Below, piece by piece: positions 35,965 to 63,100 of a DNA stretch of 64,000 nucleotides (positions are counted from its first letter, which is position 1; every line of letters starts with the position of its first letter). Position numbers and translations under genes: made by a program. The DNA is from Selenomonas ruminantium AC2024 (GTDB lineage: Bacteria > Bacillota > Negativicutes > Selenomonadales > Selenomonadaceae): the NCBI RefSeq assembly GCF_000687995.1, contig NZ_JIAC01000001.1:62001-126000 (forward strand), given 5' to 3'. The notes beneath the pieces are model-generated. The model was not told where the DNA came from and searched no databases. It saw only the letters and a program-made list of their open reading frames with translations.

Positions 35965-35988
35965 CTCTCTTCCCCTTCCCTGTTAGCC

Positions 35989-38601: not shown

Positions 38602-38638
38602 AAAAAAGACCGCTGAAAGGCTGTACCTATCTGCGGTC
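38602..38638 (-). terminator. Rho-independent terminator ending the 38.6-64 kb run
   Basis: Read on the minus strand: GACCGC, a 19-base interior, GCGGTC, then TTTTTT. It lies nine bases after the stop codon at 38647 and before the 850-residue gene. Confidence 0.8.
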
Positions 38639-38646
38639 AACACTAT

Positions 38647-44460: not shown

Positions 44461-44502
44461 ACTCCCACGCTCCATGTTTATCGCTGGCCCAATACTAACA
44501 TC

Positions 44503-45674: not shown

Positions 45675-46883
45675 TCACAACTTGTCACAAATTAATCGCT
45701 CAATAGTTTCCAGAACCATTCTTGGTGTTATCTTTTTCGAACATTCCAATTCACGATTTGTTCCCTTATGATATGGACATTTATCATCACGCCAATCCAC
45801 ACGCAAATCATTGTAGCAGCCATGACATACCTGACGATTTTGAATGCGATACGGCGTAGCAAATTCCGAATGAGGGAGCGTTATACCACTAATCAGTACC
45901 ACCGGACAGCCCACCGCATGTGCAAGCCATGAAAGACCGCTTGCCCCCCCGATAAAGAAATCGGCATAAGCTAACATATTAATGCGATCCATTAGCGTAT
46001 AATTTCCTGACCTATCCTCTGCTCGATCCGGCATCTCAATACGCATACCATCTGTTTCCGTCACTCGGTCACGGTCTATACAAATCACACGATAACCTCG
46101 CTGCTGCAAATAATCCGCCACCTGTTCCCACCCTTTGGGGTAAAGCCAGCATTTGCGCGCTCCTGATGCTTGCACAGCAATGCAAACATATGGCTCTACT
46201 ATTTCTCGCGGCTTGGTTGGATGATAACGAACCTCTGGAGCAACAGTATGCAACCCCAAAAGTTCTTGACCCACATAGTCCACCGCCAAGTTGCGGCTAT
46301 CATCAGCTATAAGAAACGGCGGCGTTTGAAAGGCTCCAATATGATAGGTTGCATATGTATCCTCTGGAATCTCCGTTACAATCTGCAGTTCTGGGTAATA
46401 ATTTGTCAATATCTCCCGAAAAGCAGGGTCGTCTAAAATCACACCTCGGCACTGCCATTTTTGTACAAAAGCACGTATATACGGGAGAAGCATGATTTTA
46501 TCTCCTAGCACATTGCCTTCAAGAATAAAACACACCGTCTGGTCAGCTGCATCGTAAATATGGGAAAAGACCATGGTTTCATCATTATATACGTCGACTT
46601 GCCAACGAATAAAATACTGCTCCATGGATATTAGTACTTTCTCCGCTACCCTATCATCGAAAAAAATCTGACCACTATTCGCATCCGTGATTTTGATATG
46701 CCAGTCTCCAGCTGGAACAGCTACACGTATACCAGCATTAAAATCAATTTTCAGTCCTTCAATGCCTGTATCGCCTTTCACAGCTCCTGCCAATTCGTCG
46801 TAACGAACAAACATACCGCTATCAGCAGCAGTAAAATCCTTAATACCTGAATAAAAATATAATACCGGCCATGCGTGCATCAT
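45675..46883 (-). CDS. TibC/Aah-like O-heptosyltransferase (copy 1)
   Basis: About 402 residues. It resembles the autotransporter O-heptosyltransferase family (TibC, Aah). The N-terminal part is a beta-rich domain with VKGDTGIEGLKIDFNAGIRV, followed by a GT9-like GT-B core with LEGNVLGDKIMLLPYIRAF, VQASGARKCWLYPKGWEQV, and FIGGASGLSWLAHAVGCPV. The C-terminus has the four-cysteine pattern CHGC...KCPYHKG...LEC, the iron-finger-type site of TibC. Known members attach heptose from ADP-heptose to Ser of autotransporters. ATG 46883 follows GAGGGGGCGG. It is one of three paralogues in the window. Confidence 0.83.
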   Translation of the reverse strand: MMHAWPVLYFYSGIKDFTAADSGMFVRYDELAGAVKGDTGIEGLKIDFNAGIRVAVPAGDWHIKITDANSGQIFFDDRVAEKVLISMEQYFIRWQVDVYNDETMVFSHIYDAADQTVCFILEGNVLGDKIMLLPYIRAFVQKWQCRGVILDDPAFREILTNYYPELQIVTEIPEDTYATYHIGAFQTPPFLIADDSRNLAVDYVGQELLGLHTVAPEVRYHPTKPREIVEPYVCIAVQASGARKCWLYPKGWEQVADYLQQRGYRVICIDRDRVTETDGMRIEMPDRAEDRSGNYTLMDRINMLAYADFFIGGASGLSWLAHAVGCPVVLISGITLPHSEFATPYRIQNRQVCHGCYNDLRVDWRDDKCPYHKGTNRELECSKKITPRMVLETIERLICDKL

Positions 46884-46893
46884 ACCGCCCCCT

Positions 46894-48483
46894 CTAAAGC
46901 TGACTGTGCATCTCCACCAACGGTTCTGGTATAGCACCAATAACCACGTCTTTTAAAACCGCCTGCCATATATCCTGCCAAGACAGGTGCCTTTTTTGTA
47001 TATGCAGTCTAAAAAAACTCAGACGTTCCATCTGGGAACGACGAAATAGCGGTGATGACAGGCCACCACTAAGCAACACATTATTTTTACGAAGGTAATC
47101 GCGATAGATATTTCCATCACCTATGGCAAAACCATCTGGAAGCTGTAAATCAACTATATTCCCTTTATCCTTTTCCCGTTGCAAAACAGGATGATTCTGA
47201 CTATTCGTCAAGATCAAATCTATATTTTCATGACGCACCAACGTTGTGACCATGTGCTGTAACCTGTGTTTTACCACTAAATCCCCTGGGAAAATCCATT
47301 GAATAAATTCACCATCAGCAGACGCAGCTATATCCTTCCAAAGTTCCTCCCCATGTTCCTGAAGGTATATTATCTCTTTTTCGGTATCTGTAGTCATCTG
47401 CTGCAAGAAGTTCAACACCCACGTATCTTCTTCCTTTGCAGCTAACGAAAAGACAATCATATTCACATAGGGATACTCTTCCTGTAAGGCCGCTGCAAAT
47501 GACTCCTTAAATGGCGTTCGTTGGCCGAAATACGGTAGGATGACCGACACCTTGTGTTGCTCAATACGAGCTTTCTCCTCACTATAATCATTGGCCAATT
47601 GTTGTGCTGCCAAAAGGACATTACGCAACAAAACATTAACTTTATTAGAGCAAACTGTGTATCTAAGCAATATATTCTGACAGTTCGAGTGAATAACAGC
47701 CTTATGTCCCTGCTTTAATTTCGGACGAACAGGCATTTTTCCTTCCAACAGATTATAAAATACATGCCGCCAATGATTAGCAAGATTCGTCTGTTTTGAA
47801 TACTTTGCCACATTAGCCAGCCAACCCACAGCCGCCTTTGAGGCCGCCTGTTCACAACTACGCCAGGAAAAATGGGCTAAATGAATTCCTTGTAATGGTA
47901 AAGCTGTAAGTCTCTGCAATCCAGAATCTTTCTTAATTAAAGCATGATGATTCCCCTGACTGAGAAAAAAATGGGTCTTTTCAAAGGCCAACCGCCCCAC
48001 CAATAATTTTCCCAAGGATTCTGGCTGTTCTTCACGATAACAATCTTCCGCCAAAATAAACTTTTTTCCTACATATTCATCTGCGGTCTGATAGGTTACC
48101 CATGGCAGCTGATAAATCTTATCTGGTGTACAAACAGTAAACAAGGCTTTACTGCACCATTTCATATCATACGCTCCATCCGGCAATAGGAACTCATCGG
48201 CATCCAAGGGCAAGACAAAGTCATAACGTTCGGCAAAAGCCTTTTGCATAAGATCGGTCATAATCTCCGATTGAGCCTGTTCAGCTCCGATATAATCCTC
48301 AACATCTAGAGACAGCCCCTCCTGTACAAGATCATCTAATATTTTCCTTGTTCCATCAGTACTGTTATGATTAACGATATAGATTTTATCAGCAAACGCT
48401 GTCGCATGTCGTACAAAACTTTCAATGATATCCGCCTCGTTGCGCACCATTGATATGACCGCTATACGCAAACTAATCACCAA
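46894..48483 (-). CDS. GT2-type glycosyltransferase with second GT-A-like half
   Basis: About 529 residues. The N-terminal half is a Glyco_tranf_2_4-type domain: RIAVISMVRNEADIIESFVR, IVNHNSTDGT, and LDADEFLLPDGA containing DxD. The C-terminal half (from ~315) begins HKVSVILPYFGQRTPFKESF and includes FIQWIFPGDLV, like a second, degenerate GT2 unit. The whole protein is paralogous to the C-terminal two thirds of the 1003-residue protein at 60178. The start is uncertain: TTG 48483, GTG 48480 or TTG 48471 (MRIAVIS..., with AAGGTTGGTGA upstream) all fit. Donor and acceptor are unknown. Confidence 0.8.
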   Translation of the reverse strand: MVISLRIAVISMVRNEADIIESFVRHATAFADKIYIVNHNSTDGTRKILDDLVQEGLSLDVEDYIGAEQAQSEIMTDLMQKAFAERYDFVLPLDADEFLLPDGAYDMKWCSKALFTVCTPDKIYQLPWVTYQTADEYVGKKFILAEDCYREEQPESLGKLLVGRLAFEKTHFFLSQGNHHALIKKDSGLQRLTALPLQGIHLAHFSWRSCEQAASKAAVGWLANVAKYSKQTNLANHWRHVFYNLLEGKMPVRPKLKQGHKAVIHSNCQNILLRYTVCSNKVNVLLRNVLLAAQQLANDYSEEKARIEQHKVSVILPYFGQRTPFKESFAAALQEEYPYVNMIVFSLAAKEEDTWVLNFLQQMTTDTEKEIIYLQEHGEELWKDIAASADGEFIQWIFPGDLVVKHRLQHMVTTLVRHENIDLILTNSQNHPVLQREKDKGNIVDLQLPDGFAIGDGNIYRDYLRKNNVLLSGGLSSPLFRRSQMERLSFFRLHIQKRHLSWQDIWQAVLKDVVIGAIPEPLVEMHSQL

Positions 48484-48498
48484 CCTTAATAAGAAATT

Positions 48499-49725
48499 TT
48501 ACAGGTTACGAATCAATTCCGGCCTAAGAAATAGATGTCCACCACACTCTGTTGGCAACAAACTCCAGCCATCCACAAAGTCCAATCCCTCTTGCCATCC
48601 GGCAGCGGTCAATGCCTGACTAACATCTTCGTAACGTTGCAGAAACAATATGTACAACCGATTTCCCTTAGGACTTACCCGTTCATATTGCAACAGACGA
48701 CCAGTCCAATCCTGATTTCCTTGAATTGCCAAGTATTTATCATCACCATCAAAGTCAAATAATTCCTTAATCGCCGCTTTTGAAGCCTCATTTGCACAAA
48801 ATATTCGTTGACGCCTGCTACCCATAGCAAAAACTTGCCGTGCCAAGTGCAAATCATGTTTGTGTTGCGCCTCCAACTGTGCAAAAAAACGATACAAGAA
48901 ATCAGCGTCACACCAAGGAGTCTGAGCGAATACAGTATAGAACAGTCTATCGTAAACATCATCTTCTCGTATTCCCAAGCTGCCTGCCTCGTAATGATAA
49001 ATGGCCGAAGTCAACTGCTGAACACCACGCATCTGCAATATTGGAACATAGGCATTATAAGCAATATCCAAATGCAAATAATCCTTGGAATAGAAAAGAT
49101 TAAGAATATCCTGATCATAAAACGCAAAACCTGGAATCTCTTTTAGCTTACAGACTCCATCCTGCAAGATATTCCCCACTGCCAAGAATTTCTGTCGATC
49201 CACCAACAGAACTCCAGAACTAAAGTAATCGCGCCCGTCTACCCAGCCGACCAACACCAGCGGATTTTCCGCTTGGTGGCCGGTATTATCAGAATCAGAT
49301 ACCGCCGCCATAGTATGTCCATCTAATGAAACTTTCCATAAAAACGCAATATCCATATTGACCACAGTATCTGCATCAAGATAAATAAACCTTGTCACTT
49401 CTTCTGGCAGAAATTTTGCCGCAAACAAACGGTAAAAAGCACCGTATGTATATCGTGACAATCCGACTTGAGGCAACGCCTGATACAAAAAAACAAGATC
49501 TGACGTTGCCAACCTTTTCATGTTATAAAAAGAAATTTTTTGTTGAAAGGACACAACAACCTGCTGAAATCGTCGTCGTTCTTGTTCAGTCAATGTCTCA
49601 TCATGCAGTAAATGAATATGTAAATCTTTTTCCATATGGTGCATAAATATTGACCAAAGCGATGTCCCTAAAAATTTACTATATGTTCCCTGTATATCCG
49701 TTAATGCATAGCATATATGAATCAT
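48499..49725 (-). CDS. GT8-family glycosyltransferase
   Basis: A 408-residue protein. The N-terminal ~270 residues are a family 8 retaining GT-A transferase: HICYALTDIQGTYSKFLGTS, YGAFYRLFAAKFLP, the DxD motif in RFIYLDADTVVNMD, FSSGVLLVDRQKF, and YDQDILNLFY. Family members transfer glucose or galactose to LPS or proteins. The C-terminal ~130 residues are unassigned and end in a short tail. ATG 49725 follows GGAGGAAATA, an excellent ribosome site. It sits fifteen bases before the following GT2 gene. Confidence 0.92.
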   Translation of the reverse strand: MIHICYALTDIQGTYSKFLGTSLWSIFMHHMEKDLHIHLLHDETLTEQERRRFQQVVVSFQQKISFYNMKRLATSDLVFLYQALPQVGLSRYTYGAFYRLFAAKFLPEEVTRFIYLDADTVVNMDIAFLWKVSLDGHTMAAVSDSDNTGHQAENPLVLVGWVDGRDYFSSGVLLVDRQKFLAVGNILQDGVCKLKEIPGFAFYDQDILNLFYSKDYLHLDIAYNAYVPILQMRGVQQLTSAIYHYEAGSLGIREDDVYDRLFYTVFAQTPWCDADFLYRFFAQLEAQHKHDLHLARQVFAMGSRRQRIFCANEASKAAIKELFDFDGDDKYLAIQGNQDWTGRLLQYERVSPKGNRLYILFLQRYEDVSQALTAAGWQEGLDFVDGWSLLPTECGGHLFLRPELIRNL

Positions 49726-49761
49726 TATTTCCTCCATAATAAAAACGCATCTTACCTAGCA

Positions 49762-50928
49762 TCAACAATTAGATCCATATAAAATTGTTATCGCACACAT
49801 AATATCCTCTGCACGATTACGCCAACAATGGCGCTTTTCTGCAATTTTGCGCGCACTTTTGGCAATTGATAATCGCCAACTTTCGTCAGCCAGCAATTTA
49901 TGAATTACTTTTATTTGCTCATCACCATTCTGCCAATCATAAAGAAATATTTCCTGACCGCAAACAAATTCTTCCTCCAAATAACTACTGTATTCACTAA
50001 CCACCACAGCCCCATTCAACATAGCAGTAAATACTCGATCATGTGCCCCATGATTAAATTCTGCTTGATCTTGAAAAACTATTTTTGCCTGTGAAAATAC
50101 TTTAACATTATCTTCATAAGGTATAGGACCATGTAATATCAATTTATTTACAAAAGGTACGCTTTCCCAATTTGCACCAAACACATCTACACGAATATCA
50201 TTTCGCACCAACATTTCTAATGCGCGATACCGACGTTGCATCTTTATGTATTGCAAAACTTGCCAAAAGTAAGGCAATAATCTTTCCAAATAAATAACAT
50301 CTACCAAGCCATGTATTTTTAATACTTCCCTAACTGCATCTACTGTTGTTACTGGATATACTTCCATATAATCTGCTACTTCATCCAACAGATATGTTAT
50401 TTGCCTATTTACCGTTCCATCATGCCACATCCTTATCGCTGGCCCATCTTGCCAACGAGACGCTGAAAAAACGACGTCATACTTTCTATCCGCCCCCTCC
50501 ACCAATCCATCATATTGTGTTCCGGCTAAAGGCATAAACATTTTATTCATATTTTTCGATGGATAGGCTATATCTAATATTTCGCCTGCCCTTTTATCCA
50601 AATAAGTTACCAGATGCTTACGACAAGGAAAGTCATATCCACCAACATACCTATTATAGGGTACATCCAACATAACCGATACATGAGGAATATCTATTTC
50701 ACTCTGCCTAGGACTTGCAGTTAATCCTATACCATTAAACCCTACACTAAACCATATCAATTCAGGATGCTGTAGCAATTCATCCACAGCTTCAACAGAT
50801 TTATAATCATCCATATCACATACAATGACATCTACACCGCACTCCCTGAATCCTTGGATAAAGCTTTTCATATTTTCCCAGATAACGGTCCCATAACTTT
50901 TCCTAATATAACAAAGTATATTCTTCAT
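49762..50928 (-). CDS. CgeB-like glycosyltransferase
   Basis: A 388-residue protein resembling the CgeB/DUF3880 type of GT-B transferase. It has KNILCYIRKSYGTVIWENM at the N-terminus, VSVMLDVPYNRY, IAYPSKNMNKMFMPLAG, RVDVFGANWESVP, and in the C-lobe AHDRVFTAMLNGAVVVSEYSS. Proteins of this group modify surface polysaccharides, spore coats or flagellin-associated glycans. ATG 50928 follows GAGAAGTGAGAG; the frame extends eleven codons upstream without better support. The substrate is unknown. Confidence 0.78.
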   Translation of the reverse strand: MKNILCYIRKSYGTVIWENMKSFIQGFRECGVDVIVCDMDDYKSVEAVDELLQHPELIWFSVGFNGIGLTASPRQSEIDIPHVSVMLDVPYNRYVGGYDFPCRKHLVTYLDKRAGEILDIAYPSKNMNKMFMPLAGTQYDGLVEGADRKYDVVFSASRWQDGPAIRMWHDGTVNRQITYLLDEVADYMEVYPVTTVDAVREVLKIHGLVDVIYLERLLPYFWQVLQYIKMQRRYRALEMLVRNDIRVDVFGANWESVPFVNKLILHGPIPYEDNVKVFSQAKIVFQDQAEFNHGAHDRVFTAMLNGAVVVSEYSSYLEEEFVCGQEIFLYDWQNGDEQIKVIHKLLADESWRLSIAKSARKIAEKRHCWRNRAEDIMCAITILYGSNC

Positions 50929-50982
50929 TTCTCTCACTTCTCTTATTATATAAAAAAACATTTTAAACCATCATATATGCAC

Positions 50983-52116
50983 CTATTTAATCAAAAAGAT
51001 ATCTGACTGAAAATCCTTACTGCTTTGACGAAATATCTGTAACGAATCCAACGGATATACAGTTTTATTTCCTTTCATATACTCTTGAATAAGAATATAT
51101 CCCTTATATTCACATTCCCGTAAACATATTAAAACATCATCAAAAAAACCATATTCCCCCCATAAATATGGATTCAACTCCATATAAAGGGGTATTTCAT
51201 TGTTTTTTAATATATTTTTTGCCCCACTTACTACTAGAGGTTCAAATCCCTCTGTATCAATCCAAATATACTTTATTTTGCCAGTTTCTAAATTGTTACC
51301 GAAAAAATAATCATCCAACGAAATAAGCGATACCTCCACTGCATGACCACCGCTGTTCTTAAGCAAGCTGCTACCTCCAGGATTCTCTTCATCATAGTAT
51401 AATACTTTTCTTTCACTACGATTAGATAATCCATAGGATTCAATGCGTGATTCATCCGCAAGTTCATTTATCTCTATATTGATTTTTAGGAGACGATTGT
51501 TGCGTACCGCTGGTTCAAAGGCAATAATTTTTATATTTTCATCTAATTTCTTGCGAAAATAAATACTGGTAGTACCAATATTTGCGCCCAAATCTAAAAA
51601 ATATCCCTCCTCATCATCTCGCAATATGTAAAACTCGTGAGCAAGTTTATAAAATAACTTCATCTCATCTGTCGACCAAGTTTGACCATCCCGATACATA
51701 TAAGGCATAATAACACAATCCGTTACCGATGCTACAAATGTAATATCATCCACCTTGCATGTGCAATATTCCTTCCAAGCACACTCTTGTCGCCATAAAA
51801 GTAATCTGCGCATACTTCCTACATTATCCCTCAATAGGAACATAGCCTGATCAAAATTTTCATACCAACTCTCAATTGAATATATAAAAACTACTCTATC
51901 CTTGAAAAATCCAACTTTCTCTAGCATTTTTTGCAAATCAAAATCTCTTATTCTTTTGGAAATAAGCAACAAATCAATTTCATCATCAATCAACCGAACA
52001 TTCTTTTCATAGGGAGGGATAATCTGTACAATCTCCAAACGATCAAGATGCATATTTTCATTTATCCATTTCTTTCCATACCCATCTATATCCCAGATAA
52101 CCACACGTGCTTTCAT
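50983..52116 (-). CDS. FkbM-family methyltransferase
   Basis: A 377-residue protein. The C-terminal half is an FkbM domain: GYFLDLGANIGTTSIYFRKK, KIIAFEPAVRNN, YGLSNRSERKVL, and KYIWIDTEGFEPLVVSGAKN, where the usual KxDVEG is WIDTEG. The N-terminal ~100 residues (RVVIWDIDGYGKKWINEN) could be a divergent copy of the island's Rossmann module, with GYG in place of GAG. ATG 52116 follows GGAG nine bases upstream; a GTG at 52143 is less likely. An 8-bp inverted repeat (AAAGATGC / GCATCTTT) lies in the 108-base gap upstream. Confidence 0.82.
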   Translation of the reverse strand: MKARVVIWDIDGYGKKWINENMHLDRLEIVQIIPPYEKNVRLIDDEIDLLLISKRIRDFDLQKMLEKVGFFKDRVVFIYSIESWYENFDQAMFLLRDNVGSMRRLLLWRQECAWKEYCTCKVDDITFVASVTDCVIMPYMYRDGQTWSTDEMKLFYKLAHEFYILRDDEEGYFLDLGANIGTTSIYFRKKLDENIKIIAFEPAVRNNRLLKINIEINELADESRIESYGLSNRSERKVLYYDEENPGGSSLLKNSGGHAVEVSLISLDDYFFGNNLETGKIKYIWIDTEGFEPLVVSGAKNILKNNEIPLYMELNPYLWGEYGFFDDVLICLRECEYKGYILIQEYMKGNKTVYPLDSLQIFRQSSKDFQSDIFLIK

Positions 52117-52251
52117 ACCATATACTCCATGTAAAAATTTCACCGTACAATTGTTTGCATGTCATAAAAGATGCTCCTGATTTATACACAATAAACCAAT
52201 TCGACCATTAATGCATCTTTCGCACAAAATTTCGAATCCAATAAACTATTC

Positions 52252-53388
52252 CTATTCTCGTTTCTCACAAAATACACACCGGCCTTCACCATAAAATAAT
52301 TTTCCCTTGCTATGCAACCGATGTCGTAGTTTTGCCAACACAGCCTCTCGATTAGGAATATCCAACGAATCCCCCAAGATAAGTATAATATCCTGTCGTG
52401 CTGGAATACCTGCTGTTATCTTCTCCCAATCAGAAACATAGCGAATTGGAAAATCCCTGACAGCCAGTCTTGCTTCCGTCTCATTAAATACAATACCTGA
52501 CAGACGCATTTGTGGATATTTACGATGTAAATAACAAAGATCCAGTCCCACACTGCAACGAATCAGCAATACCTGCTTTTTGGCATCCTCCGATTGCAAA
52601 ACTCCTGTCATTCCATGAAAAACTTTATAATCATATTTTACCTGCCACTTATTAAGGAATTTTTCCTTATTTTCCTGCAATATGCCAGCAAAGAGTTCCT
52701 GTTTAACCCTTGCTTTCTCTGGGTCACTCTCATCCTTAAACGAGGCGCTACCATAGTGATGAATAAAAGTATCTGTGCACAGCAACAATCTCCAGCCAGC
52801 CTGCCGAATGGCAAATGAATAGTCATCATCTTCATAATTTCCTGGACTGTAACGTTCATCAAGGCCACCGAGTTTCTCGTATACTTCATACTTCAACAAA
52901 AAGCAAAATCCTACCAATGTTGGCCAAGTATACCACTTCTGTGTATCCGAATGGTTATAGTCTTCAGAAAAAGCTATCAAATCTTCCATAGTCTGATAAG
53001 AAACATCGATTGCTTGTTGATTAGAACAGTTATTTGTGACGCAGCTTACTGCTCCCACCTTGTCAGCGCTATATAAAGCCCTATGCAAATTATCCAGCCA
53101 TCGTGGAGTCACGATGGTATCACTATTGAGCAATAATAAATCATTGCCAAATGTGGCTGCCTGCATTCCTTGATTACAACCTGCCGGAAACCCCACATTC
53201 TCACGATTTTCCAGCAGTTTTACGTCCTTTTGCTGACGCAACCAGTCTACCGATCCATCTTCTGAAGCATTATCTACCACAATTATTTCATATTTTTTTT
53301 TAGACGTATACGCCCTAATACTCTCAATGCATAAACGCGTATATTCTTGCGTATTATAGCTTACTATTATAATGCTCGTTTTCCTCAT
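52252..53388 (-). CDS. GT2 (rhamnosyltransferase-like) glycosyltransferase
   Basis: A 378-residue protein. Residues 1-~245 are a family 2 transferase: TSIIIVSYNTQEYTRLCIES, IIVVDNASEDGSV, ENVGFPAGCNQGM, LLLLNSDTIVTP and NYEDDDYSFAIRQAGWRL. This pattern is typical of rhamnosyltransferase-type GT2 enzymes. Residues ~275-378 (VLLIRCSVGLDLCYLHRKYP, DIILILGDSLDIPN) look like a shortened methyltransferase-like Rossmann fold without a glycine-rich loop. The start overlaps the previous FkbM stop by four bases (ATGA type). Confidence 0.87.
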   Translation of the reverse strand: MRKTSIIIVSYNTQEYTRLCIESIRAYTSKKKYEIIVVDNASEDGSVDWLRQQKDVKLLENRENVGFPAGCNQGMQAATFGNDLLLLNSDTIVTPRWLDNLHRALYSADKVGAVSCVTNNCSNQQAIDVSYQTMEDLIAFSEDYNHSDTQKWYTWPTLVGFCFLLKYEVYEKLGGLDERYSPGNYEDDDYSFAIRQAGWRLLLCTDTFIHHYGSASFKDESDPEKARVKQELFAGILQENKEKFLNKWQVKYDYKVFHGMTGVLQSEDAKKQVLLIRCSVGLDLCYLHRKYPQMRLSGIVFNETEARLAVRDFPIRYVSDWEKITAGIPARQDIILILGDSLDIPNREAVLAKLRHRLHSKGKLFYGEGRCVFCEKRE

Positions 53389-54191
53389 AATTCCCTAGCT
53401 CCATTGATTTGAATAGGCGATTCTTTTGGCAGGCAGATGACATTTATCGAGGCAATAGATATATTAGCCACAGTTTCCTCATCCACAGGAATTGTCGCTA
53501 TAAATACATTTTCTGGATTATGAAAGAAATTATCTTCATTGTAAAGTGGCGCATTGTGGTCAAAAATACGATATCCCAAAGATTTCGTATATGCTAGCAA
53601 CTTCTCTCTTTTCTGCGGTCTATCAGCTTCCATATAGATAACCGGACGATATTTCTCAATCGTTTTCCGCGCTCCTTGCAGAACGTTTTGCTCCATACCT
53701 TCCACATCAATCTTCATAAAATCACAACGCGGTAACTCCAACGAATCCAACGTTATTACTTGCACTGGCTCTCCAGCCTGACTGTGTTCCAGAGACAATC
53801 CTCCCCAGTTCACTATATCATCAACATCCAACACTGGCACCAAGATTGTACCCGATTTATCGCTGACACATTGTTGCTGACAAAAAACATTAGTTATCCC
53901 ATTTATGGCCATATTTCCTGCCAGCAACTGGAAAACCAATCTTTGCGGTTCAAATGCCCACACCACACCGCTATCTCCTACCAGCTGCGCTAGATGTACT
54001 GTATGTGAACCTATATTAGCTCCAACCTCTACCACTGTATCTCCCGGCTTAATGAAAAATTCAAAAATACGAGCTTCCGACTCAGAATACTCACCATATA
54101 ACTCTAATGATTTCCCAATATATTGATCCCTAGTATTATATATAATCTTCCCATAGCGAAAATCTATACATTTATTCATGCTTTTTCTCAT
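53385..54191 (-). CDS. FkbM-family methyltransferase
   Basis: A 268-residue protein with a compact FkbM fold. It shows FFIKPGDTVVEVGANIGSHT (SAM loop), VVWAFEPQRLVFQLL, and CDFMKIDVEGMEQNVLQGAR, then RPVIYMEADRP. It is full length for a stand-alone member and lacks an extra domain. It probably O-methylates a sugar residue of the glycan. It is coupled to the GT2 gene downstream and follows a TibC-like gene by ten bases. Confidence 0.9.
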   Translation of the reverse strand: MRKSMNKCIDFRYGKIIYNTRDQYIGKSLELYGEYSESEARIFEFFIKPGDTVVEVGANIGSHTVHLAQLVGDSGVVWAFEPQRLVFQLLAGNMAINGITNVFCQQQCVSDKSGTILVPVLDVDDIVNWGGLSLEHSQAGEPVQVITLDSLELPRCDFMKIDVEGMEQNVLQGARKTIEKYRPVIYMEADRPQKREKLLAYTKSLGYRIFDHNAPLYNEDNFFHNPENVFIATIPVDEETVANISIASINVICLPKESPIQINGAREL

Positions 54192-54201
54192 AACTTTTAC
54201 C

Positions 54202-55395
54202 TCATTCCTGCAAACACCGTTGTACCTGCTTCCATACCTGCTCTACCGTAATTTCCCTTGAACACTCTAATTCACGTTCCGTCCCTTGATGATAAGGACA
54301 TAAACTGTTTTTGTCACTCACACGCAAGTCATTATGACAGCCATGACATACCTGATAATTAATGACCCGATAAGGCGTAAAGAATTCATTACTCGGCAAT
54401 GTAAAACCGCTGATCAACACTACTGGCGTTCCAGCAGCATAAGCCAACCAGGAAAGGCCACTGGATACACCAATGAAACAAGCTGCTCCGGCCAGCAATT
54501 CCAAACGTTCTATCAAAGGCCGGTAACCTGTAAAATCTTCTGCTCCTTGCGGAATTCCAGCAACATATCTGCCTTCTCGTAATTCTTGATTACCATCAAT
54601 ACATAGTACCCGATAGCCAGACTCCTGCAATTTTGCTGTAAGAATCTCCCATCCGTGCGGATAGTGCCAACATTTTTTTATTCCTGTGGCCTGAGTAGCT
54701 ATACACACATACGGAAATTTGTCAGCAGTCACAGCGTTTCTGTCCACCAGCCGCAATTTTGGAGGTATTATCGGCATATGCAATATAATACTTCCCATCT
54801 GCGGCAATGGTATCAGACGTGCATCTACTGGCGACAATATCGGTGTATCCTGAAATATTCCCAACACAAAAGCGGCATAGCAGTCCACAGGAAAATCTTT
54901 AACCATTGTTAACTGAGGAAAACATTTGCCAAGCAGCGATGAAAAATTTTCCTGCCACTGACAGACAATCCTACAATTATACCGCTTCTGAAAAGCCAAT
55001 ACATAGGGCATAATGGCCAACATATCCCCCAATGCATTTCCTAAATGCATATATACCAGTTGCCCTGTCACATCCAACTGATGGACAAAAACCAGTTCTC
55101 CATCCTTCATGACTTCTACCTGCCAGGGAATATAATATTTCTCCATAGAAATCAAACACTGCGCGGCAAGTTTTCCGGCAAAATATTCTTGTCCGCTTTC
55201 GCCATCTCTAATGCGGATAAAGAAATCACCGTCAGGCACTTCTAGACGCAGACCAAAATTAAAGTCTAGTTTTAAGCCTGTGATACCTGTATCCCCCTTG
55301 ACTTCACCAGCTAACTTATTCAGTTTTATCAACAATGCTTGCTGATAGGCTGTCATCTCATTCTGCGCTGCGCTAAAAACGACAATCGGTTTCAT
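54202..55395 (-). CDS. TibC/Aah-like O-heptosyltransferase (copy 2)
   Basis: About 397 residues and clearly paralogous to the products at 45675 and 57994: VKGDTGITGLKLDFNFGLRL in the N-terminal beta domain, LGNALGDMLAIMPYVLAF, ATQATGIKKCWHYPHGWEIL, FIGVSSGLSWLAYAAGTPV, and the C-terminal cysteines CHGC...LCPYHQG...LEC. Known relatives transfer heptose to Ser of adhesin autotransporters and need the metal-binding cysteines. I prefer ATG 55395 (MKPIVVF...), which matches the paralogues' N-termini; the frame extends to TTG 55440 within the upstream gene. Confidence 0.83.
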   Translation of the reverse strand: MKPIVVFSAAQNEMTAYQQALLIKLNKLAGEVKGDTGITGLKLDFNFGLRLEVPDGDFFIRIRDGESGQEYFAGKLAAQCLISMEKYYIPWQVEVMKDGELVFVHQLDVTGQLVYMHLGNALGDMLAIMPYVLAFQKRYNCRIVCQWQENFSSLLGKCFPQLTMVKDFPVDCYAAFVLGIFQDTPILSPVDARLIPLPQMGSIILHMPIIPPKLRLVDRNAVTADKFPYVCIATQATGIKKCWHYPHGWEILTAKLQESGYRVLCIDGNQELREGRYVAGIPQGAEDFTGYRPLIERLELLAGAACFIGVSSGLSWLAYAAGTPVVLISGFTLPSNEFFTPYRVINYQVCHGCHNDLRVSDKNSLCPYHQGTERELECSREITVEQVWKQVQRCLQE

Positions 55396-55427
55396 CTCTT
55401 TATCCACCAACTCTATAATATTTCCGT

Positions 55428-56696
55428 CTATTTCACCCAACTACATATTGCTAATGATACAGCTTCCAAAATTTCATCAGGATCAATACCAGCAATACAA
55501 TGGGAAAATTTTTCTTTGCAACCGCCATAAATCAAAACATCTTTGCAATTTCCCGCCGACTTATCCGGCCGTAACATTATCGCCTGCTCTGACCAGGGAA
55601 CAAATCTTGCGCATTCACTATAATACCCCAGCTGTGGATATTCCTTATCCATAGCCTCCCGGTAGCAAGCCACTACGGGCGTCTTCACCGCTGTGGCTAG
55701 ATGCATCATCCCACTGTCATTACCTAGAAATAAATCTGCTTCAGCCAGCACAGCCGCCGCCTCACGCAGCGATGTTTTACCTGTAAGATCAATGATCATA
55801 GCTGAAGCGCAGTTTTCTTGCAAATACCTGCCATCCCCTTTATCCTCAGGCCCTCCCAGCAATACAAAACAAACGTCAATTTTTTTTATTAGCTTTTCTA
55901 TAACTGTATGCCATTGATTAATCGGATATTTATGCGTATCATCACTAGCGCCGATTCCCATGGCGATAATGAGTTTTCCTTGTACCCGTGCAGGGTTCAA
56001 CCACGCTTCAGCTCGAAAACCATCCTCCGATGAATACCAGGCTTCCAGTCGGTCATCAGTAACAGTCCCTCCCACAGCTTGCAACAAGTACAAATAACGC
56101 TCTGTCTCAGCCACAATTTCCGGTGGATTGTAAATGGCCTGCGTCAGCAATGCATGTTCTACCGTCAAATCCAATTCATCATCAAGATACAATAAAGGCA
56201 CGCCACTGCTATAAGCATATCGTCTATAACTGCCACTCATGTAGGCAATAAGCATGGTATCAAATTTTCCACCGCCCCACTGTGGACAAAGGCATAAATC
56301 ATAATAATGTTGCCAAAGATGTACCTTGCAAAACTCTAGCAGGCTCTTCCACCAAACTGGAAAATCAGCCAGAAAATCCGTTGTTTCAAAGCAAAGCACT
56401 TCATTGACATAAGGACAATATTCCAAAAGCGATTTGGTTAACGGACGACAAACCACTGTGATAAATGCATGTGGATAATTGCGTCGCACTTCTCGAATAA
56501 ACGCACTTGTTAAGACCATATCACCAATGGCATCAAAACGTAACAGTAAAATCTTTTTTACTTCACCATCTACACGATAACCTGCTTGTTCAAACGCAGG
56601 TTCCATTATTTTTTGCAGCGCTACGATATCTCCAATATTAACTTGTTCCTTTTCTTCCAACCATCCCTTAGCCAATGCCATCAATTCTTGCTGCAC
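55428..56696 (-). CDS. GT9 (heptosyltransferase-like) glycosyltransferase
   Basis: A 422-residue family 9 transferase. It shows ILLLRFDAIGDMVLTSAFIREV, AFITVVCRPLTKSLLEYC, AMGIGASDDTHKYPINQW, and LFLGNDSGMMHLATAVKTP. The C-terminus has CKDVLIYGGCKEKFSHCIAGI, the same cysteine pattern as the other GT9 copies. The open frame runs 44 codons further upstream, but that part is antisense-like shadow of the previous gene's end. GTG 56696 follows AGAGGT and lies four bases after the upstream stop. It is a tandem paralogue of the next gene upstream. Confidence 0.87.
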   Translation of the reverse strand: MQQELMALAKGWLEEKEQVNIGDIVALQKIMEPAFEQAGYRVDGEVKKILLLRFDAIGDMVLTSAFIREVRRNYPHAFITVVCRPLTKSLLEYCPYVNEVLCFETTDFLADFPVWWKSLLEFCKVHLWQHYYDLCLCPQWGGGKFDTMLIAYMSGSYRRYAYSSGVPLLYLDDELDLTVEHALLTQAIYNPPEIVAETERYLYLLQAVGGTVTDDRLEAWYSSEDGFRAEAWLNPARVQGKLIIAMGIGASDDTHKYPINQWHTVIEKLIKKIDVCFVLLGGPEDKGDGRYLQENCASAMIIDLTGKTSLREAAAVLAEADLFLGNDSGMMHLATAVKTPVVACYREAMDKEYPQLGYYSECARFVPWSEQAIMLRPDKSAGNCKDVLIYGGCKEKFSHCIAGIDPDEILEAVSLAICSWVK

Positions 56697-56700
56697 GATT

Positions 56701-57990
56701 TTACCTCTCCCTTGTCTTTTCCCATAAAGCAATAAAAGCCGCAAGTACCTTTTCTGGCGGAATAGTAGCAATACAATGTGCCGACTTAGCAAAACAACCA
56801 CCATAAATAATTTCATCACGACATGCATCTAATGCTTTTTCCGGCCTTAATGCAACAAAGGGGACCTGCCATGGCGTGAACCGATGATAACCACTAAAGA
56901 CACCTGGTAGAAAATCATCCTTATCCAATGGATCACGGAAAAAAGCCAATACCGGCTTATGCAGAGCTGCTGCCATGTGCAATGTTCCCGTATCATTACC
57001 GATATATAACTGACATGCATCCAGAGCTGCCCCAGTCTCGCGCAGGGATGTCATTCCCACAATATTGACTACTGCATCCTTGGGAAGTTTTTGAATTAAT
57101 TCTGCCGCAACCTGTTTTTCTCCTTGACCGCCTAATATAACAAAACAAAGCTCCGGATACTGTTCCAATATAAGACGCAAAGCCGCTGCCAATAATTGAG
57201 GTGGATATTTACGATTAGGTGTGCCGGCACCAAGACCAACCGCCACACAAGTCTGATGCCGTGAAAATGGCTGTTGTAGTAATTTTACAATCTTCTGACG
57301 ATCTTCTTTACCATACCAAAGTTCCATACTAGTGTCCTGTGGCTTATGCCCTAATGCCTCCAAGACATAAAAAATACGCGCTGCTTCATGAATGTATTCT
57401 GCCGGACTCACCAAAGCTTGTGTTAACAATTCTTCAGCAAAATTAGGCTTTGCTTGAAAATCACCATATACATTAAATACCGTACTACTAAAATCCACAC
57501 GTTCCTTGGCACCGCTTATATATTCCACCAAACGGATTTCATTGCGTAATTGTGCCCACCCCCACAACTTAGATATGCACATATCAAAATGTCGGGGCCA
57601 TAAATACTTTTCAGCGAGATTCAGCAACTCACACCATGCCATTTGTTGGTCAATCTTGAAACTTCGTTCGTCATAAAGAATGTATTCATTTATGTAAGGA
57701 CAATATTTCCAAAGAGCAGCAACCCCAGGCCGTACCAACACGGCAATATACGCCTGTTGATACGCTCGACGCAATTCCCGCATAAATCCAGTGGTGAGCA
57801 CTGTATCCCCCACTGCATCAAACAACAGCACCAAAATCGTTTGCACTGCTCCATTCTTTGATTGGCGTAACCCAGCCTGACGAAAAGCAGGCTCCATAAT
57901 GGCCTGCAGTTTTACCACTGATAATTGGTTAACATCCATTTTCTGTGCCAGAAGCTGCTGACCAGCAAAGTGAAGTGCTTCCATTCCCAT
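56701..57990 (-). CDS. GT9 (heptosyltransferase-like) glycosyltransferase
   Basis: A 429-residue family 9 transferase, tandem paralogue of the 55428 product. Visible motifs are ILVLLFDAVGDTVLTTGFMREL, AYIAVLVRPGVAALWKYC, AVGLGAGTPNRKYPPQL, LYIGNDTGTLHMAAALHKP, and the C-terminal CRDEIIYGGCFAKSAHCIATI. ATG 57990 follows GGAGGCAATAGG. In this segment GT9 and TibC-like genes alternate, which suggests that they act on the same glycan or share the ADP-heptose donor. The donor identity is inference from the family. Confidence 0.87.
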   Translation of the reverse strand: MGMEALHFAGQQLLAQKMDVNQLSVVKLQAIMEPAFRQAGLRQSKNGAVQTILVLLFDAVGDTVLTTGFMRELRRAYQQAYIAVLVRPGVAALWKYCPYINEYILYDERSFKIDQQMAWCELLNLAEKYLWPRHFDMCISKLWGWAQLRNEIRLVEYISGAKERVDFSSTVFNVYGDFQAKPNFAEELLTQALVSPAEYIHEAARIFYVLEALGHKPQDTSMELWYGKEDRQKIVKLLQQPFSRHQTCVAVGLGAGTPNRKYPPQLLAAALRLILEQYPELCFVILGGQGEKQVAAELIQKLPKDAVVNIVGMTSLRETGAALDACQLYIGNDTGTLHMAAALHKPVLAFFRDPLDKDDFLPGVFSGYHRFTPWQVPFVALRPEKALDACRDEIIYGGCFAKSAHCIATIPPEKVLAAFIALWEKTRER

Positions 57991-57993
57991 ATC

Positions 57994-59226
57994 CTATTGC
58001 CTCCCGTGGTCATGTATGCAGCGCTCAATTGCCCGTTTAACCATTGTTGGTGGTATCATGCGCTGACATTCCAGATAATGCTCACTATCTTTTTCATATC
58101 GCTGACAAGCTCTGTCGATATAGTGAATCTTCTCGTCATGAAAACAAAAATGGCATACTCTGGGATTCATAACACGATAACTCTCGGGGAATTCATACCA
58201 AGGTGCTGTAAAACCAGCAATCAAGACAGCGGGACAACCTGCCATCCATGCCAGCCAGGAAAGCCCACTGCTAAGGCCAATGAAAAAGTCCGCATAAGCC
58301 AGCATATCTGCACGTTCGGCCAAAGGATGATTTCCCGTAAAATCTTCTGCCCCAGCAGGTATTTTTACTGTAATGCCGTATTCTGATTGTTCCCGGTCTC
58401 TATCTATACACAGCACTCGATATCCTAAGTTCTTCAAATATGCTACAATTTCTTCCCAACCACCAGGCCAAAGCCATGATTTCGCCACCCCCGAAGCCTG
58501 TACGGCGATGCATACATACGGTTCCTTGATACATCGTGGCTTATGTGGTTGCCATGGGACTCGTGGTGGCAATTGCTCCAGCCCCATAATTTGTTGCACG
58601 GCTGCACGTAAAGGCATCATTTGTCCATTAATGGGCATAAAATGCGGATCCCCCAAACCAGCCGCCAGATAGAATACTGCATAGACATCTTCAGGTACAT
58701 ATTGACATAAAACAAACTGAGGATATGCCTCACGGACAAAATCACGCAAGTTCTCACCAACATCCATAGATATTTGAACATTATGAGACTCTGCATACAT
58801 GGCCACACCTGGCAGGATAGCTAAAACATCGCCCAAACACCTGCTCACAACCATAATATGCACATGCTGCCCTTCCGTGTCAAACTGATGTTCAAAAACC
58901 TTTTGCCCGGCAAAAAAAATCTCCACCAGCCAAGGGATGTAATACTTTTCCTCCGATGCCAATATAACTTCTGATACATCTTCATCAAACAGAATTATCC
59001 CTGTTTCTGCATCCGACAACCTAACATGATAATCCCCTGCCGGAATTTGCAGCCTAAGACCATTGCGAAAATCCAGTTTTACTCCTTCTATACCTGTATC
59101 TCCTGCTACGCCCCCCACATGTATATGCATTTCATTGAAAAATGCATTATTTATTTTTTCGATTCTTTCTTCTTCCTGTTCCGTATAATCATGGCAGGAA
59201 AAATAGTAAAAAGGATATGGAAACAT
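57994..59226 (-). CDS. TibC/Aah-like O-heptosyltransferase (copy 3)
   Basis: About 410 residues. Family segments are VAGDTGIEGVKLDFRNGLRL, VSRCLGDVLAILPGVAMY, VQASGVAKSWLWPGGWEEIV, FIGLSSGLSWLAWMAGCPA, and the C-terminal cysteines CHFC...ACQRYEK...LEC. The CPYH-type turn of the other two copies is altered here but all four cysteines remain. ATG 59226 (MFPYPFYYF) matches the paralogues; GGGGGA lies about twelve bases upstream, which is long. An upstream frame to 59274 is possible. It ends three bases before the GT9 start. Confidence 0.8.
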   Translation of the reverse strand: MFPYPFYYFSCHDYTEQEEERIEKINNAFFNEMHIHVGGVAGDTGIEGVKLDFRNGLRLQIPAGDYHVRLSDAETGIILFDEDVSEVILASEEKYYIPWLVEIFFAGQKVFEHQFDTEGQHVHIMVVSRCLGDVLAILPGVAMYAESHNVQISMDVGENLRDFVREAYPQFVLCQYVPEDVYAVFYLAAGLGDPHFMPINGQMMPLRAAVQQIMGLEQLPPRVPWQPHKPRCIKEPYVCIAVQASGVAKSWLWPGGWEEIVAYLKNLGYRVLCIDRDREQSEYGITVKIPAGAEDFTGNHPLAERADMLAYADFFIGLSSGLSWLAWMAGCPAVLIAGFTAPWYEFPESYRVMNPRVCHFCFHDEKIHYIDRACQRYEKDSEHYLECQRMIPPTMVKRAIERCIHDHGRQ

Positions 59227-59234: not shown

Positions 59235-60161
59235 CTATTCCCCCTTTTTGGCATTCATGAAATTTATGCACCAATCCACCAACAGTAGAACATAGGCATA
59301 ATTATCACCAAACTCCTGCTGCAAAACAGGCTTTATCCGTTGATTTATCTCTTCCAAAGGATATTGTGCTGCTACGGGAGCAAAATGCCCCCAAAATGAC
59401 AACTTCACTAAAAATGCTAATATCATTTGACGAGAATTCCTGTCGTCAGCTAATTCTGGAATCATCGCCATATAAGTATCCATCTGTCTTACTGCCCTAA
59501 TAACAGAATCCATATATGCCGGAACTTTCTCCAACAGATTCCCTCTGGTTATGGATTTGGGTGTATGTACCAACTCATATAATACTCCCGGAACCATTAC
59601 CACTCTTGATGCTACGAATAAATTCTCCAACGAAAACAAGACATCTTCCAAAAAAACATGCTGATGAAAACGAATCCCACTTTTCATGATTAAATCCCGT
59701 GAAAATAGCTTTTGAACCGCTGAGGTCATAAAATCAAAATTATATACATGTTCCACTCGTTTCTGAAGCAATGACTCCATCAACACTGGTTCTGCTATTT
59801 TATCGCCTGCTTCTGCTGCGATATCAGCCTTATTGATTATTGCCGCCTGATATAGATGCTTCAAATAGTCGGCATGCAAAATATCATCAGCATCCACGAA
59901 TGCCAAAAATCGTCCTTTAGCCCTCTCTATTCCCGCATTTCTTGTTAAACCGGCCCCCATATTTCTCACATTCTGCCACAACTTTACCTGCGGCAATCCA
60001 CAGTAAAGACGCTGACACAATTCATAGCTCCCATCCGTTGACTGGTCATCAATCAGTAAAATCTCTATATTGTTTAATGTTTGCCCCAAAATACTATCTA
60101 TGGTTTTCTGCAAATATTGTACTTTATTGTAAACTGGCACAATTACCGATACGCTGACCAT
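59235..60161 (-). CDS. GT2 glycosyltransferase
   Basis: A 308-residue family 2 transferase: VSVSVIVPVYNKVQYLQKTI, LLIDDQSTDGSYELC, RNAGIERAKGRFLAFVDADD with the DxD motif, and FLEDVLFSLENLFVASR. It is full length for simple GT2 enzymes. There is no membrane segment. ATG 60161 follows AAGGGGGATAGGG. It lies sixteen bases after the 1003-residue gene and its 3' end abuts the third TibC-like gene. Donor and acceptor are unknown. Confidence 0.9.
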   Translation of the reverse strand: MVSVSVIVPVYNKVQYLQKTIDSILGQTLNNIEILLIDDQSTDGSYELCQRLYCGLPQVKLWQNVRNMGAGLTRNAGIERAKGRFLAFVDADDILHADYLKHLYQAAIINKADIAAEAGDKIAEPVLMESLLQKRVEHVYNFDFMTSAVQKLFSRDLIMKSGIRFHQHVFLEDVLFSLENLFVASRVVMVPGVLYELVHTPKSITRGNLLEKVPAYMDSVIRAVRQMDTYMAMIPELADDRNSRQMILAFLVKLSFWGHFAPVAAQYPLEEINQRIKPVLQQEFGDNYAYVLLLVDWCINFMNAKKGE

Positions 60162-60177
60162 TCCCTATCCCCCTTAT

Positions 60178-63100
60178 TTAAAACATATTGCTACTCTGCA
60201 GTAATACTTGTTGATACCGTTGCCATAGAGATGTTGTCGTATTGCATCCAGAAGCCAATGCCCTTGTCAATATCTTCTCGCCGTTTCGACAGAATAGTTG
60301 CACGGTCTCACGTAAATCCTTGCTCTTCCAAGTCGTCTTCTCCAGTTGCAGTAATTCCCACCATTCCAACTGATGAATAACCAAATTCTCCAAAGACATG
60401 ACCTTACTTTCTGGACAGGCATAACAATCGGATATCACGCCAACCAAGCCATCCCCCACAGCTGACAGTAGTACTTTCCAAGCAGTAAAAGGCAGCCGCT
60501 TTCCTTCTGGCAACAGAAATGAATTACAAAGCCAACCACAGTTATCCATCGCTTCTCTGGTAATCAATGCTGCTGTGATATCGCCAGCAGGATATTTACC
60601 AATTTCCAGCAGACGCTGCCAAAACGCATTCCCTAGTGCCACTTGAGTGTTATCCAAGGGATGAATCATAATATAGGGATACTCATTACTATAATCTTCC
60701 CTAGCATCCGAAACCACCACTTGCAATGGCACAATTTGTTCCATACCAGCACTTACCATACGCTTCAAAAAATTATTAGCGACCTCTGTCCCTGGCAACT
60801 GCCAATGAACAAATTTTCCCTTGGCTTTTGCTGATAACTGAGAAAACACATTCTGTATTTCATCATATCCAAACACATCCCAATCATATTTTCCCTGTAT
60901 TTTTTTCTGACAGATTTCATTAATCTGATGTAATGCTATTTCTCCTGTCTGCTGCAAACAAGGAATGAGCAATTGCTGCCAGAGATAGTCCTGTTCAACG
61001 GCCTGTTGCAAGCGTTGTGTAAAATCCTCCATTTGTCCCATATAGGGAACTACCGTGGTAACCAATATCTTTTGCACCAGCATTTGCTGTTCTGCAACAC
61101 GTTCCGCCAACAGGACACTAGCCTTCATCAGATTGCCCATTGGCTGTGGTGTTGTTTCTTGGCTATAACGCAATATTTGTGGCTCGACAAAGGGACGTAA
61201 ATCCATTAAACTGCCTTGCTTCAGAAACTCCAGAGGACTTATCATTTCCCCTTTTATCATCCGCTGGTGATAATTGCGATAACCACCACCTGCAACAGAT
61301 GCCAACGAGTATCTAGCCACGATATTGGGCCACCCCACAGCAATCTTTGTCTGAAATTGTTCCTGACTACGCCAATAGAAATGCGCCAGTTCCATTGACT
61401 GGCACCTCTGCATTTCCACATCAATTTGCTGACCATTCTGCTCATAATACACACAATGATTACCTTGGACAAGTTTCAGTTTATACCGCATCACCGAACG
61501 TGCACCAACGATACATTTTTGTCCGGAATCACGATAAACATCACCGATTACAGGCCGTGACAAAATGAATTCATCCCTATGCAAATGCGGTTGATATAGT
61601 ATATAACGACGCCATGGCAATTCATATACTATGCTATCATCCAGTTCTTCCAACCATTCCCGTACATTTTTTCCTGCTGCCGTACCTACCAGAAATTCAT
61701 CTGTATCCAATGGAATGACAATATCCGCTCCATGATCATTTATTGCCTCATACATGAGTTCTGTGGTCAATTCCGCCTGCGCATACTCCACTCTGCTAAC
61801 CTTTTGCACACTAAGCGACAGCCCCTCCTGTTGTAACGCTGTAAGAATTGCGCTAGTCTTATCTGAACTATAATGATCCAGTATCAATAATTCATCAGCA
61901 AAGCTCAGCGTATGCCTCACGAAACTTTCAATGATGTCCATCTCATTGCGAACCATCGCAATGGCTACAATATGATGTTTTTTCACACTTGCCGGTGCAG
62001 ATTTTGCATAGGATGCTCTACTCTCCCATTCCTGCCAGCGAATATTTTCTACCGCTCTACACAGTTCCTCCGTTGCCAAAGTTTTTACTTCCTGTATCTG
62101 GGGCAATATGCTTTCCAACAGCCATGGCAGGTGTTCCTGCCAGCTGCCAGTCTGCAAAGTACGCAAAATAGCTTCAGCCAGCACATGTTCCAAACGCTCC
62201 AGCTCTATTTTGGCCTCCGGATGTTCCAATCGTTCTTGCCGGCAGCATCGCCATAGATATTGCAGTTCTTCACCTAAGCCCTCCCATTTTTTGTCTCCAG
62301 CAGGATAGCACTCCAGCCACCCCAACAACTGAATGGTCATTGACGTATATCTATGCTTACGTAAAGCTCCCCAAAGTCGTACGAAATCTATATATCGACG
62401 TTTTTGCCAGTAAGTCCGCAAATCATCACACCTGCGATTAGTCCCTGCCAGACGCTCCTCAGTCGACAGGTCATACCCCAACGCCTCAATTTGCTCGCGC
62501 CAAAATGACGCATTCGTGACATCCCAGCCATGACAGCCAAACGGTTTAAGCGTACCTGCTGCTATCCGGCGATAGCAGTTCTGCACCTCTTCCTGTACAG
62601 AAAATTGTAGAGCAACCTGTAAAGGCGCACATTGGAATTCAACATCCTTTTGCACACCACACCAGCCCCAAAAAGAATCTTCCACACGCAAAAAAACATC
62701 CTGAAAAATCTGCTGTCGTTCCCTGGGCATATTTTCCCATTGTCTCAGTGCTTTTCGTGCTGCCACAATTCGTCGCAATGACAAACCACCATTACCTACT
62801 CTTGCCCCTATTGCATGCCAAATAGGATTGTAGGGAGCAATAGGAGCCCCAATATAATCGTACCCTAGTTCACAAAATTCCTGTAACCGATCTGCAAAAA
62901 CAAAGGCATCCAACTGGTAAATAAGCAGATAATCATATTTTGCAAAGCGCGCATAATAGGTCTCATTCAACAACAACCGGCTATAACTGGTAATACTGGT
63001 AAACCACTGGTCTGGGAAACGCTCCACTGCAATACCATTTTCCAAGCCCTCATATGCAAACTTCAAGGATTCTGGTGCAACAAACACACAAGGGTAATTT

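What the first reader, a model, noticed from the sequence alone, without database searches (positions are those of the whole stretch)
45675..59226. Three TibC/Aah-like O-heptosyltransferase paralogues in 14 kb
Products at 45675, 54202 and 57994 share the VxGDTGIxGxKxDF beta domain, a GT9-like core and a C-terminal CxxC...C...LEC metal site. Known relatives hyperglycosylate autotransporter adhesins, usually with one enzyme per target. Three divergent copies suggest either different acceptors or different sugars, and indicate that proteins are glycosylated by this island.
Basis: partly seen in the sequence, partly recalled or inferred. Interest (0 to 1): 0.67.

Follow-up and report, generated by a model that had tools for sequence, protein, structure and literature searches.

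The report
Three TibC-like heptosyltransferases beside flagellin
A rumen-type Selenomonas carries three intact relatives of the E. coli enzymes that sugar-coat adhesins, but they lie in a gene train that starts at the flagellin gene, so they most likely decorate the flagellum rather than the adhesins the family is named for.

Summary
The products at 45675-46940, 54202-55440 and 57994-59274 (B1-B3, minus strand) are full-length members of the TibC/Aah heptosyltransferase family (TIGR04414 351/346/330 bits, cut-off 200). All three keep the catalytic and sugar-binding residues and the four metal cysteines. B1's predicted fold matches TibC. The genome has no strand-loop-strand (TIGR04415) or AIDA-stalk (PF16168) acceptor. 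The three genes lie 19-32 kb downstream of fliC, in an unbroken co-directional gene train (largest gap 108 bp) behind flgK-flgL-fliW-flaG-fliD-fliS-fliC. Gene order is conserved in other Selenomonas species, each enzyme with its own orthologue set. In Selenomonadaceae, high-scoring 'classical' homologues go with AIDA-type autotransporters (6 of 6 genomes tested). Genomes holding only the derived type have none (0 of 19), and five lack autotransporters altogether. The best explanation is a derived subfamily moved into flagellin O-glycosylation, heptosylating flagellin or its glycan in the cytoplasm from ADP-heptose. Donor and acceptor are inferred, not shown. This is a new variant of a known kind; automatic naming as 'autotransporter' enzymes is probably wrong here.

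The parts
45675..46940 (-). B1: TibC/Aah-like heptosyltransferase (421 aa from TTG; an internal ATG about 20 codons in matches the orthologues' length)
   Evidence: orthologues 76-78% identical in G002, G012 and G019
54202..55440 (-). B2: TibC/Aah-like heptosyltransferase (412 aa from TTG)
   Evidence: orthologues 69-72% identical in G002, G008, G012 and G019
57994..59226 (-). B3: TibC/Aah-like heptosyltransferase (from ATG; longest ORF to TTG at 59274)
   Evidence: orthologues 64-65% identical in G002, G008, G012 and G019
55428..57990 (-). two GT9-family (heptosyltransferase-like) genes between B2 and B3; the downstream one probably starts later than its longest ORF
   Evidence: Pfam and NCBIfam
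40783..42042 (-). third GT9-family gene of the train
42883..44475 (-). TPR + GT41 glycosyltransferase
46894..53388 (-). GT2, GT8, CgeB-like GT, FkbM methyltransferase and GT2 genes between B1 and B2
   Evidence: GT8 and GT2 orthologues in order in relatives
53385..54191 (-). FkbM-like methyltransferase next to B2; a 62% homologue sits next to a derived BAHT beside flagellin in G188
   Evidence: sequence
59235..63947 (-). GT2, DUF5672-GT2 and GT2 genes linking B3 to the fliC side (train continues beyond the window)
28796..40736 (-). downstream half of the same co-directional train: TagF-, IspD-, SDR-, GDPD- and TagD-like genes and glycosyltransferases
   Evidence: gaps at most 105 bp; families

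Best explanation
B1, B2 and B3 are three specialised cytoplasmic heptosyltransferases of a derived branch of the TibC/Aah family, working in the flagellin O-glycosylation pathway. Most likely they take heptose from ADP-heptose made by the housekeeping LPS pathway and put it on Ser/Thr of the surface-exposed part of flagellin, or on the first sugars already there, before export through the flagellar type III apparatus. The neighbouring GT41, GT2, GT8 and GT9 enzymes and FkbM methyltransferases would then extend and methylate the glycan. Three copies, each with its own conserved orthologue set, would act on different sites or steps. Shown here: family membership, conserved active and metal sites, fold, co-directional linkage to fliC, conserved synteny, and absence of the usual acceptor. 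Inferred: the donor sugar, flagellin as acceptor, and division of labour.
For: (1) TibC numbering: the catalytic base D110, K230, R286, W305 and cysteines 339/342/358/370 are present in all three (functional roles from PMC4358343). B1's model (pLDDT 88) superposes on TibC 4rap with TM up to 0.91, next best being WaaF/WaaC-type enzymes. (2) fliC to B1 is 32 kb of genes on one strand with no gap over 108 bp, directly behind flgK-flgL-fliW-flaG-fliD-fliS-fliC. (3) The order fliC - GT2TPR x2 - GT41x2 - GT41 - TPR - GT4 - DUF5672 - B3 - B2 - GT8 - GT2 - B1 is kept in G012 and G019 and, with a truncated B1, in G008; G002 has the same glycosyltransferase order up to a contig end. One derived copy sits 5-27 kb from fliC or fliS in G003, G006, G023, G024, G066, G067, G178, G192 and G209. 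Counted by hand, a derived BAHT and fliS share a contig within 64 kb in 14 of 27 genomes, against 0 of 15 for classical BAHTs (Fisher p 4.6e-4). (4) AIDA stalk is found in 6 of 6 genomes with classical copies and 0 of 19 with derived copies only (P 5.6e-6). TIGR04415 is absent from the genome. (5) G008, G019, G024, G198 and G202 carry derived copies but no PF03797 autotransporter; G066 and G209 carry them but no TPS domain. (6) HldE-type kinase and adenylyltransferase, RfaD/HldD and GmhB are encoded at about 674-682 kb. (7) S. sputigena flagellin is heavily O-glycosylated according to PMC7142665 and PMC13339959. Flagellin O-glycosylation elsewhere is cytoplasmic and precedes export (PMC7591256).
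Against: No biochemistry. Gene neighbourhood shows pathway, not acceptor. The published summary of S. sputigena glycans names rhamnose, not heptose, and it is not known here whether that species has these enzymes. Several flagellated Selenomonas of the same genus have no BAHT, so heptosylation is not needed for flagella. In about half of the genomes the derived BAHT and fliS lie on different contigs, many of the assemblies being fragmented; in G181 they share one contig but lie 181 kb apart. A nested branch (genus g13) sits beside giant RTX-like proteins instead, so acceptors may have shifted within the subfamily. Genomes are related, so the Fisher values overstate independence.
Confidence: 0.62

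Rival explanations
1. They glycosylate autotransporters, as the family name says: the divergent autotransporters at about 750-764 kb of this genome, whose passengers lack recognisable AIDA repeats.
For: Family precedent (PMC4358343). The genome encodes at least three, probably four, PF03797-type autotransporters with beta-helix-like, Ser/Thr- and Gly-rich passengers.
Against: They lie about 640 kb away. No TIGR04415 or PF16168 match in the genome. S. montiformis (G008), ND2010 (G019), G024, G198 and G202 keep derived copies without any PF03797 hit.
Confidence: 0.08
2. They extend an existing flagellin glycan (acceptor is a sugar, for example GlcNAc put on by the adjacent GT41 enzymes), not the protein itself.
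For: GT41 genes lie just behind fliC. Three GT9-family genes also occur in the train. Three conserved paralogues fit successive sugar positions. Sequential monosaccharide transfer to flagellin is the known mode (PMC7591256).
Against: The only tested relatives, TibC and AAH, modify Ser of protein and even free peptide (PMC4358343). The N-terminal TibC_1st domain, important for TibC activity, is retained.
Confidence: 0.3
3. They modify the two-partner-secreted giant protein (2786 aa) encoded with its transporter just upstream of flgK, or another surface protein such as an RTX-type adhesin.
For: TpsB homologue adjacent to flgK in G003, G006, G008, G012 and G019. HMW1C precedent for exoprotein glycosylation (general knowledge). 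Genus g13 suggests that BAHTs can pair with giant RTX-like proteins.
Against: G066 and G209 have derived BAHTs in the flagellin island and no TPS domain found anywhere. G023 has no TpsB hit in the 4.7 kb before flgK.
Confidence: 0.1
4. They use a different donor (another nucleotide sugar), so that 'heptosyltransferase' is wrong although the fold is right.
For: T226 of TibC is Ser in B1, B3 and nearly all derived copies; three derived copies elsewhere have Glu at the catalytic-base position. The island encodes many other sugar-modifying enzymes.
Against: K230, R286 and W305, which bind the sugar in TibC, are kept in nearly all copies. The ADP-heptose pathway is present. Ser at 226 also occurs in some classical copies.
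Confidence: 0.2

Closest known systems
TibC (ETEC) and AAH (DAEC), the BAHT family / NCBIfam TIGR04414
   Same: Full-length homology (35-36% identity), TibC_1st + GT9-fold domains, catalytic base, sugar-binding residues, four-cysteine metal site, predicted fold (TM up to 0.91)
   Different: No AIDA or strand-loop-strand acceptor in the genome; linked to flagellin instead of an adjacent autotransporter; three paralogues; hydrophobic F265-V266 thumb pair not kept as such (aligned GM, RY, GI)
Classical BAHTs of Selenomonadaceae (e.g. G013, G067, G068, G181, G184, G192)
   Same: Same family and host family, same active site
   Different: 450-580 bits to TIGR04414 against 300-390; in genomes with AIDA-repeat autotransporters, often right beside them; separate from the derived clade (100/100 support)
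Flagellin glycosylation islands with cytoplasmic O-glycosyltransferases (Maf, FlmG; Geobacillus and Caulobacter)
   Same: Dense train of sugar genes directly at fliC; TPR-containing GT-B enzymes; modification expected before export
   Different: No described island uses TibC/Aah-type heptosyltransferases, as far as the searched literature shows
LPS heptosyltransferases WaaC and WaaF (GT9)
   Same: GT-B core; next-best structural matches (TM about 0.5)
   Different: No TibC_1st domain or four-cysteine finger; lipid acceptor

Membership tests
TibC/Aah heptosyltransferase family (TIGR04414, BAHT) | Full-length match above the curated cut-off (200 bits) | tested here: met
   350.9, 346.2 and 330 bits
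TibC/Aah heptosyltransferase family (TIGR04414, BAHT) | N-terminal TibC_1st beta domain plus GT9 core | tested here: met
   PF21129 and PF01075 above cut-off in all three; B1 model matches TibC
TibC/Aah heptosyltransferase family (TIGR04414, BAHT) | Catalytic Asp110 and sugar-binding Lys230, Arg286, Trp305 (TibC numbering) | tested here: met
   present in B1, B2 and B3; Thr226 is S/T/S
TibC/Aah heptosyltransferase family (TIGR04414, BAHT) | Four metal cysteines 339, 342, 358, 370 | tested here: met
TibC/Aah heptosyltransferase family (TIGR04414, BAHT) | Beta-hairpin thumb with two successive hydrophobic residues (F265, V266), needed for the TibC dodecamer | tested here: inconclusive
   aligned residues are GM, RY and GI; but most classical Selenomonadaceae copies also lack the pair
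TibC/Aah heptosyltransferase family (TIGR04414, BAHT) | Partner autotransporter with strand-loop-strand / AIDA repeats | tested here: not met
   no TIGR04415 and no PF16168 in the single-contig genome
TibC/Aah heptosyltransferase family (TIGR04414, BAHT) | Transfer of heptose from ADP-heptose to serine | not testable with these tools
   needs enzyme assay; ADP-heptose genes present
Flagellin glycosylation island | Sugar genes contiguous and co-directional with fliC, conserved across species | tested here: met
Flagellin glycosylation island | Flagellin carries the glycan and loses it in mutants | not testable with these tools
   flagellin of S. sputigena reported O-glycosylated in papers read here; this strain not examined

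The most novel reading that the evidence does not exclude
A derived branch of the autotransporter heptosyltransferases has been recruited in Selenomonadaceae to heptosylate flagellin, with a further shift to giant RTX-type adhesins in one genus. The family would then be a general cytoplasmic protein-heptosylation system whose acceptor changes with its genomic partner, and flagellin would carry O-heptose, which the searched literature does not report.
Probability: 0.4. Interest if true: 0.7.

Novelty: new variant of a known kind. Interest (0 to 1): 0.52.

Why it matters
These enzymes are named 'autotransporter strand-loop-strand O-heptosyltransferase' by the standard NCBI model, yet here and in many relatives the named acceptor is missing and the gene sits at flagellin. 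If flagellin is the acceptor, a well-studied protein heptosylation system has changed its target, the basis of acceptor choice can be studied by comparing sister clades, and a new flagellar modification is predicted in common rumen and gut bacteria (ADP-heptose and related heptose metabolites are innate immune signals, from general knowledge).

Tried and rejected
Autotransporter target: rejected as the main reading because genomes without PF03797 keep the enzymes and the AIDA stalk sorts perfectly with the classical type. Recent tandem duplication: rejected, 40-43% identity and separate orthologue sets. Pseudogenes: rejected for B1-B3 (intact, active-site complete). The beta-hairpin thumb as a mark of the derived clade: dropped, because classical relatives vary there too. 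A phylum-wide search for BAHTs outside the family gave only one further genome (G483), with a classical-type score; its neighbourhood was not examined. Papers on S. ruminantium and S. sputigena flagellin glycans are not held.
Full report
Observation. Each matches TibC_1st and Glyco_transf_9 in Pfam and the NCBI equivalog TIGR04414 far above its cut-off (351, 346 and 330 bits against 200). B1 matches the TibC crystal sequence at E 2.8e-65. Mapped on TibC, the catalytic base D110, the sugar-binding K230, R286 and W305 and all four metal cysteines are present in all three (functions from PMC4358343). The AlphaFold2 model of B1 (pLDDT 88.1) has TibC chains as its 21 best PDB matches (TM 0.77-0.91), then WaaF and WaaC. 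They are the only copies in the genome.

Host. The window is bases 62001-126000 of a single-contig 2.83 Mb genome. Its nearest named relatives for B3 are Selenomonas sp. ND2010, S. montiformis and S. ruminantium.

The usual acceptor is missing. TIGR04415 (the heptosylation-target repeat) and PF16168 (AIDA stalk) have no match in the genome. The genome does encode PF03797-type autotransporters at about 750-764 kb, with other beta-helix-like passengers, and TPS exoproteins.

The neighbourhood is flagellar. Just past the window come GT2, GT4, TPR, GT41, double-GT41 and two GT2-TPR genes, then fliC, fliS, fliD, flaG, fliW, flgL and flgK (the flagellar names other than fliC are my reading of the sequences, with FliS confirmed by PF02561). 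From fliC to B1 there are 32 kb of genes on one strand; the largest gap is 108 bp and many genes overlap. Promoters and terminators inside the train were not examined, so one transcript is not claimed.

Conservation. G008 (S. montiformis) has it too, with B1 reduced to a 189-residue frame. G002 has the same order of glycosyltransferases, but its contig ends at the gene that adjoins fliC elsewhere. Orthologues of B1, B2 and B3 form three separate sets, each with bootstrap support of 100, which predate the split of these species. One derived BAHT lies 5-27 kb from fliC or fliS in nine further genomes of the family.

Two kinds of BAHT in one family. Of 189 Selenomonadaceae genomes 91 have at least one. 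They split into high-scoring classical copies and a derived clade (54 of 83 rows, 100/100, branch 0.93). In several genomes classical copies lie beside AIDA or SLS autotransporters. Of 25 genomes tested for the AIDA stalk, it was present in all 6 that have classical copies and in none of the 19 with derived copies only (P = 5.6e-6 for random labels; relatedness is not corrected for). Derived copies and fliS share a contig within 64 kb in 14 of 27 genomes by hand count, classical ones in 0 of 15 (test). Five genomes with derived copies have no PF03797 autotransporter (G008, G019, G024, G198, G202), and two have no TPS domain (G066, G209). Of the acceptor classes tested, only flagellin is not excluded by such a case.

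A second shift. In genus g13, a nested clade of BAHTs forms tandem runs of up to five or six genes beside giant, partly RTX-like ORFs of 3600-3800 residues. The RTX matches of the largest ORFs are weak; the clear one is the 1014-residue neighbour in G128 (66 bits). This is consistent with acceptor choice following the genomic partner.

Mechanism. TibC and AAH act on Ser of protein and free peptide with ADP-heptose (PMC4358343). Flagellin O-glycosylation elsewhere takes place in the cytoplasm before export (PMC7591256). The ADP-heptose genes are present. The flagellin has a 209-residue middle region with 26% Ser+Thr, which permits but does not prove modification. Direct heptosylation of flagellin and extension of a GT41-started glycan cannot be separated from sequence, and donor choice is inferred.

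Literature. Searches for O-heptosyltransferase with flagell*, for heptose with flagellin glycosylation islands, and for heptosyltransferase, Aah and flagellin glycosylation showed no paper that, by its title, abstract or the passages read, links this enzyme family to flagella. The library is open-access only, so this is not proof of novelty. The two papers on Selenomonas flagellin glycans were not held; later papers that cite them report heavy O-glycosylation in S. sputigena.

Verdict. A real and well-supported derived subfamily.

Noticed in passing
window 30870-35964: TagF-, IspD/TarI-, SDR-, GDPD- and TagD-like genes (teichoic-acid-type glycerol- or ribitol-phosphate chemistry) lie in the same co-directional train in an outer-membrane bacterium; the TagD-like fusion is 84-85% identical in G002, G008, G019 and G024.
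   Followed up: partly
L137 (G125:C18:124-131 kb), L140, L143, L145, L147: Tandem runs of 3-5 or more BAHT genes, some next to giant partly RTX-like ORFs, in genus g13 of Selenomonadaceae; C39-peptidase ABC exporters lie about 30 kb away in G127.
   Followed up: partly
G002, G008, G012, G019 orthologues of B3, B2 and B1: B3 is 97-98% identical between four species while B1 is 82-91%: parts of the island look homogenised by recent exchange.
   Followed up: no
L079 14464-15033 (G008): The B1 orthologue of S. montiformis is a 189-residue internally deleted frame.
   Followed up: no
L052 5455-15491: A 2786-residue two-partner exoprotein and its transporter sit in the flagellar gene cluster next to flgK, also in several relatives.
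   Followed up: partly
window 6269-7516 and 9971-11259: IS256-like and IS66-like transposase genes near the far end of the island (named by eye).
   Followed up: no
window 25322-26512 and 27647-28792: Radical-SAM-like genes fused to a nucleotide-sugar-type N-terminal domain, in the glycan island (named by eye).
   Followed up: no
G192:C6 54428-62474: A classical BAHT lies between an AIDA autotransporter and a flagellin-like gene, the only place seen where both partner types flank one copy.
   Followed up: no
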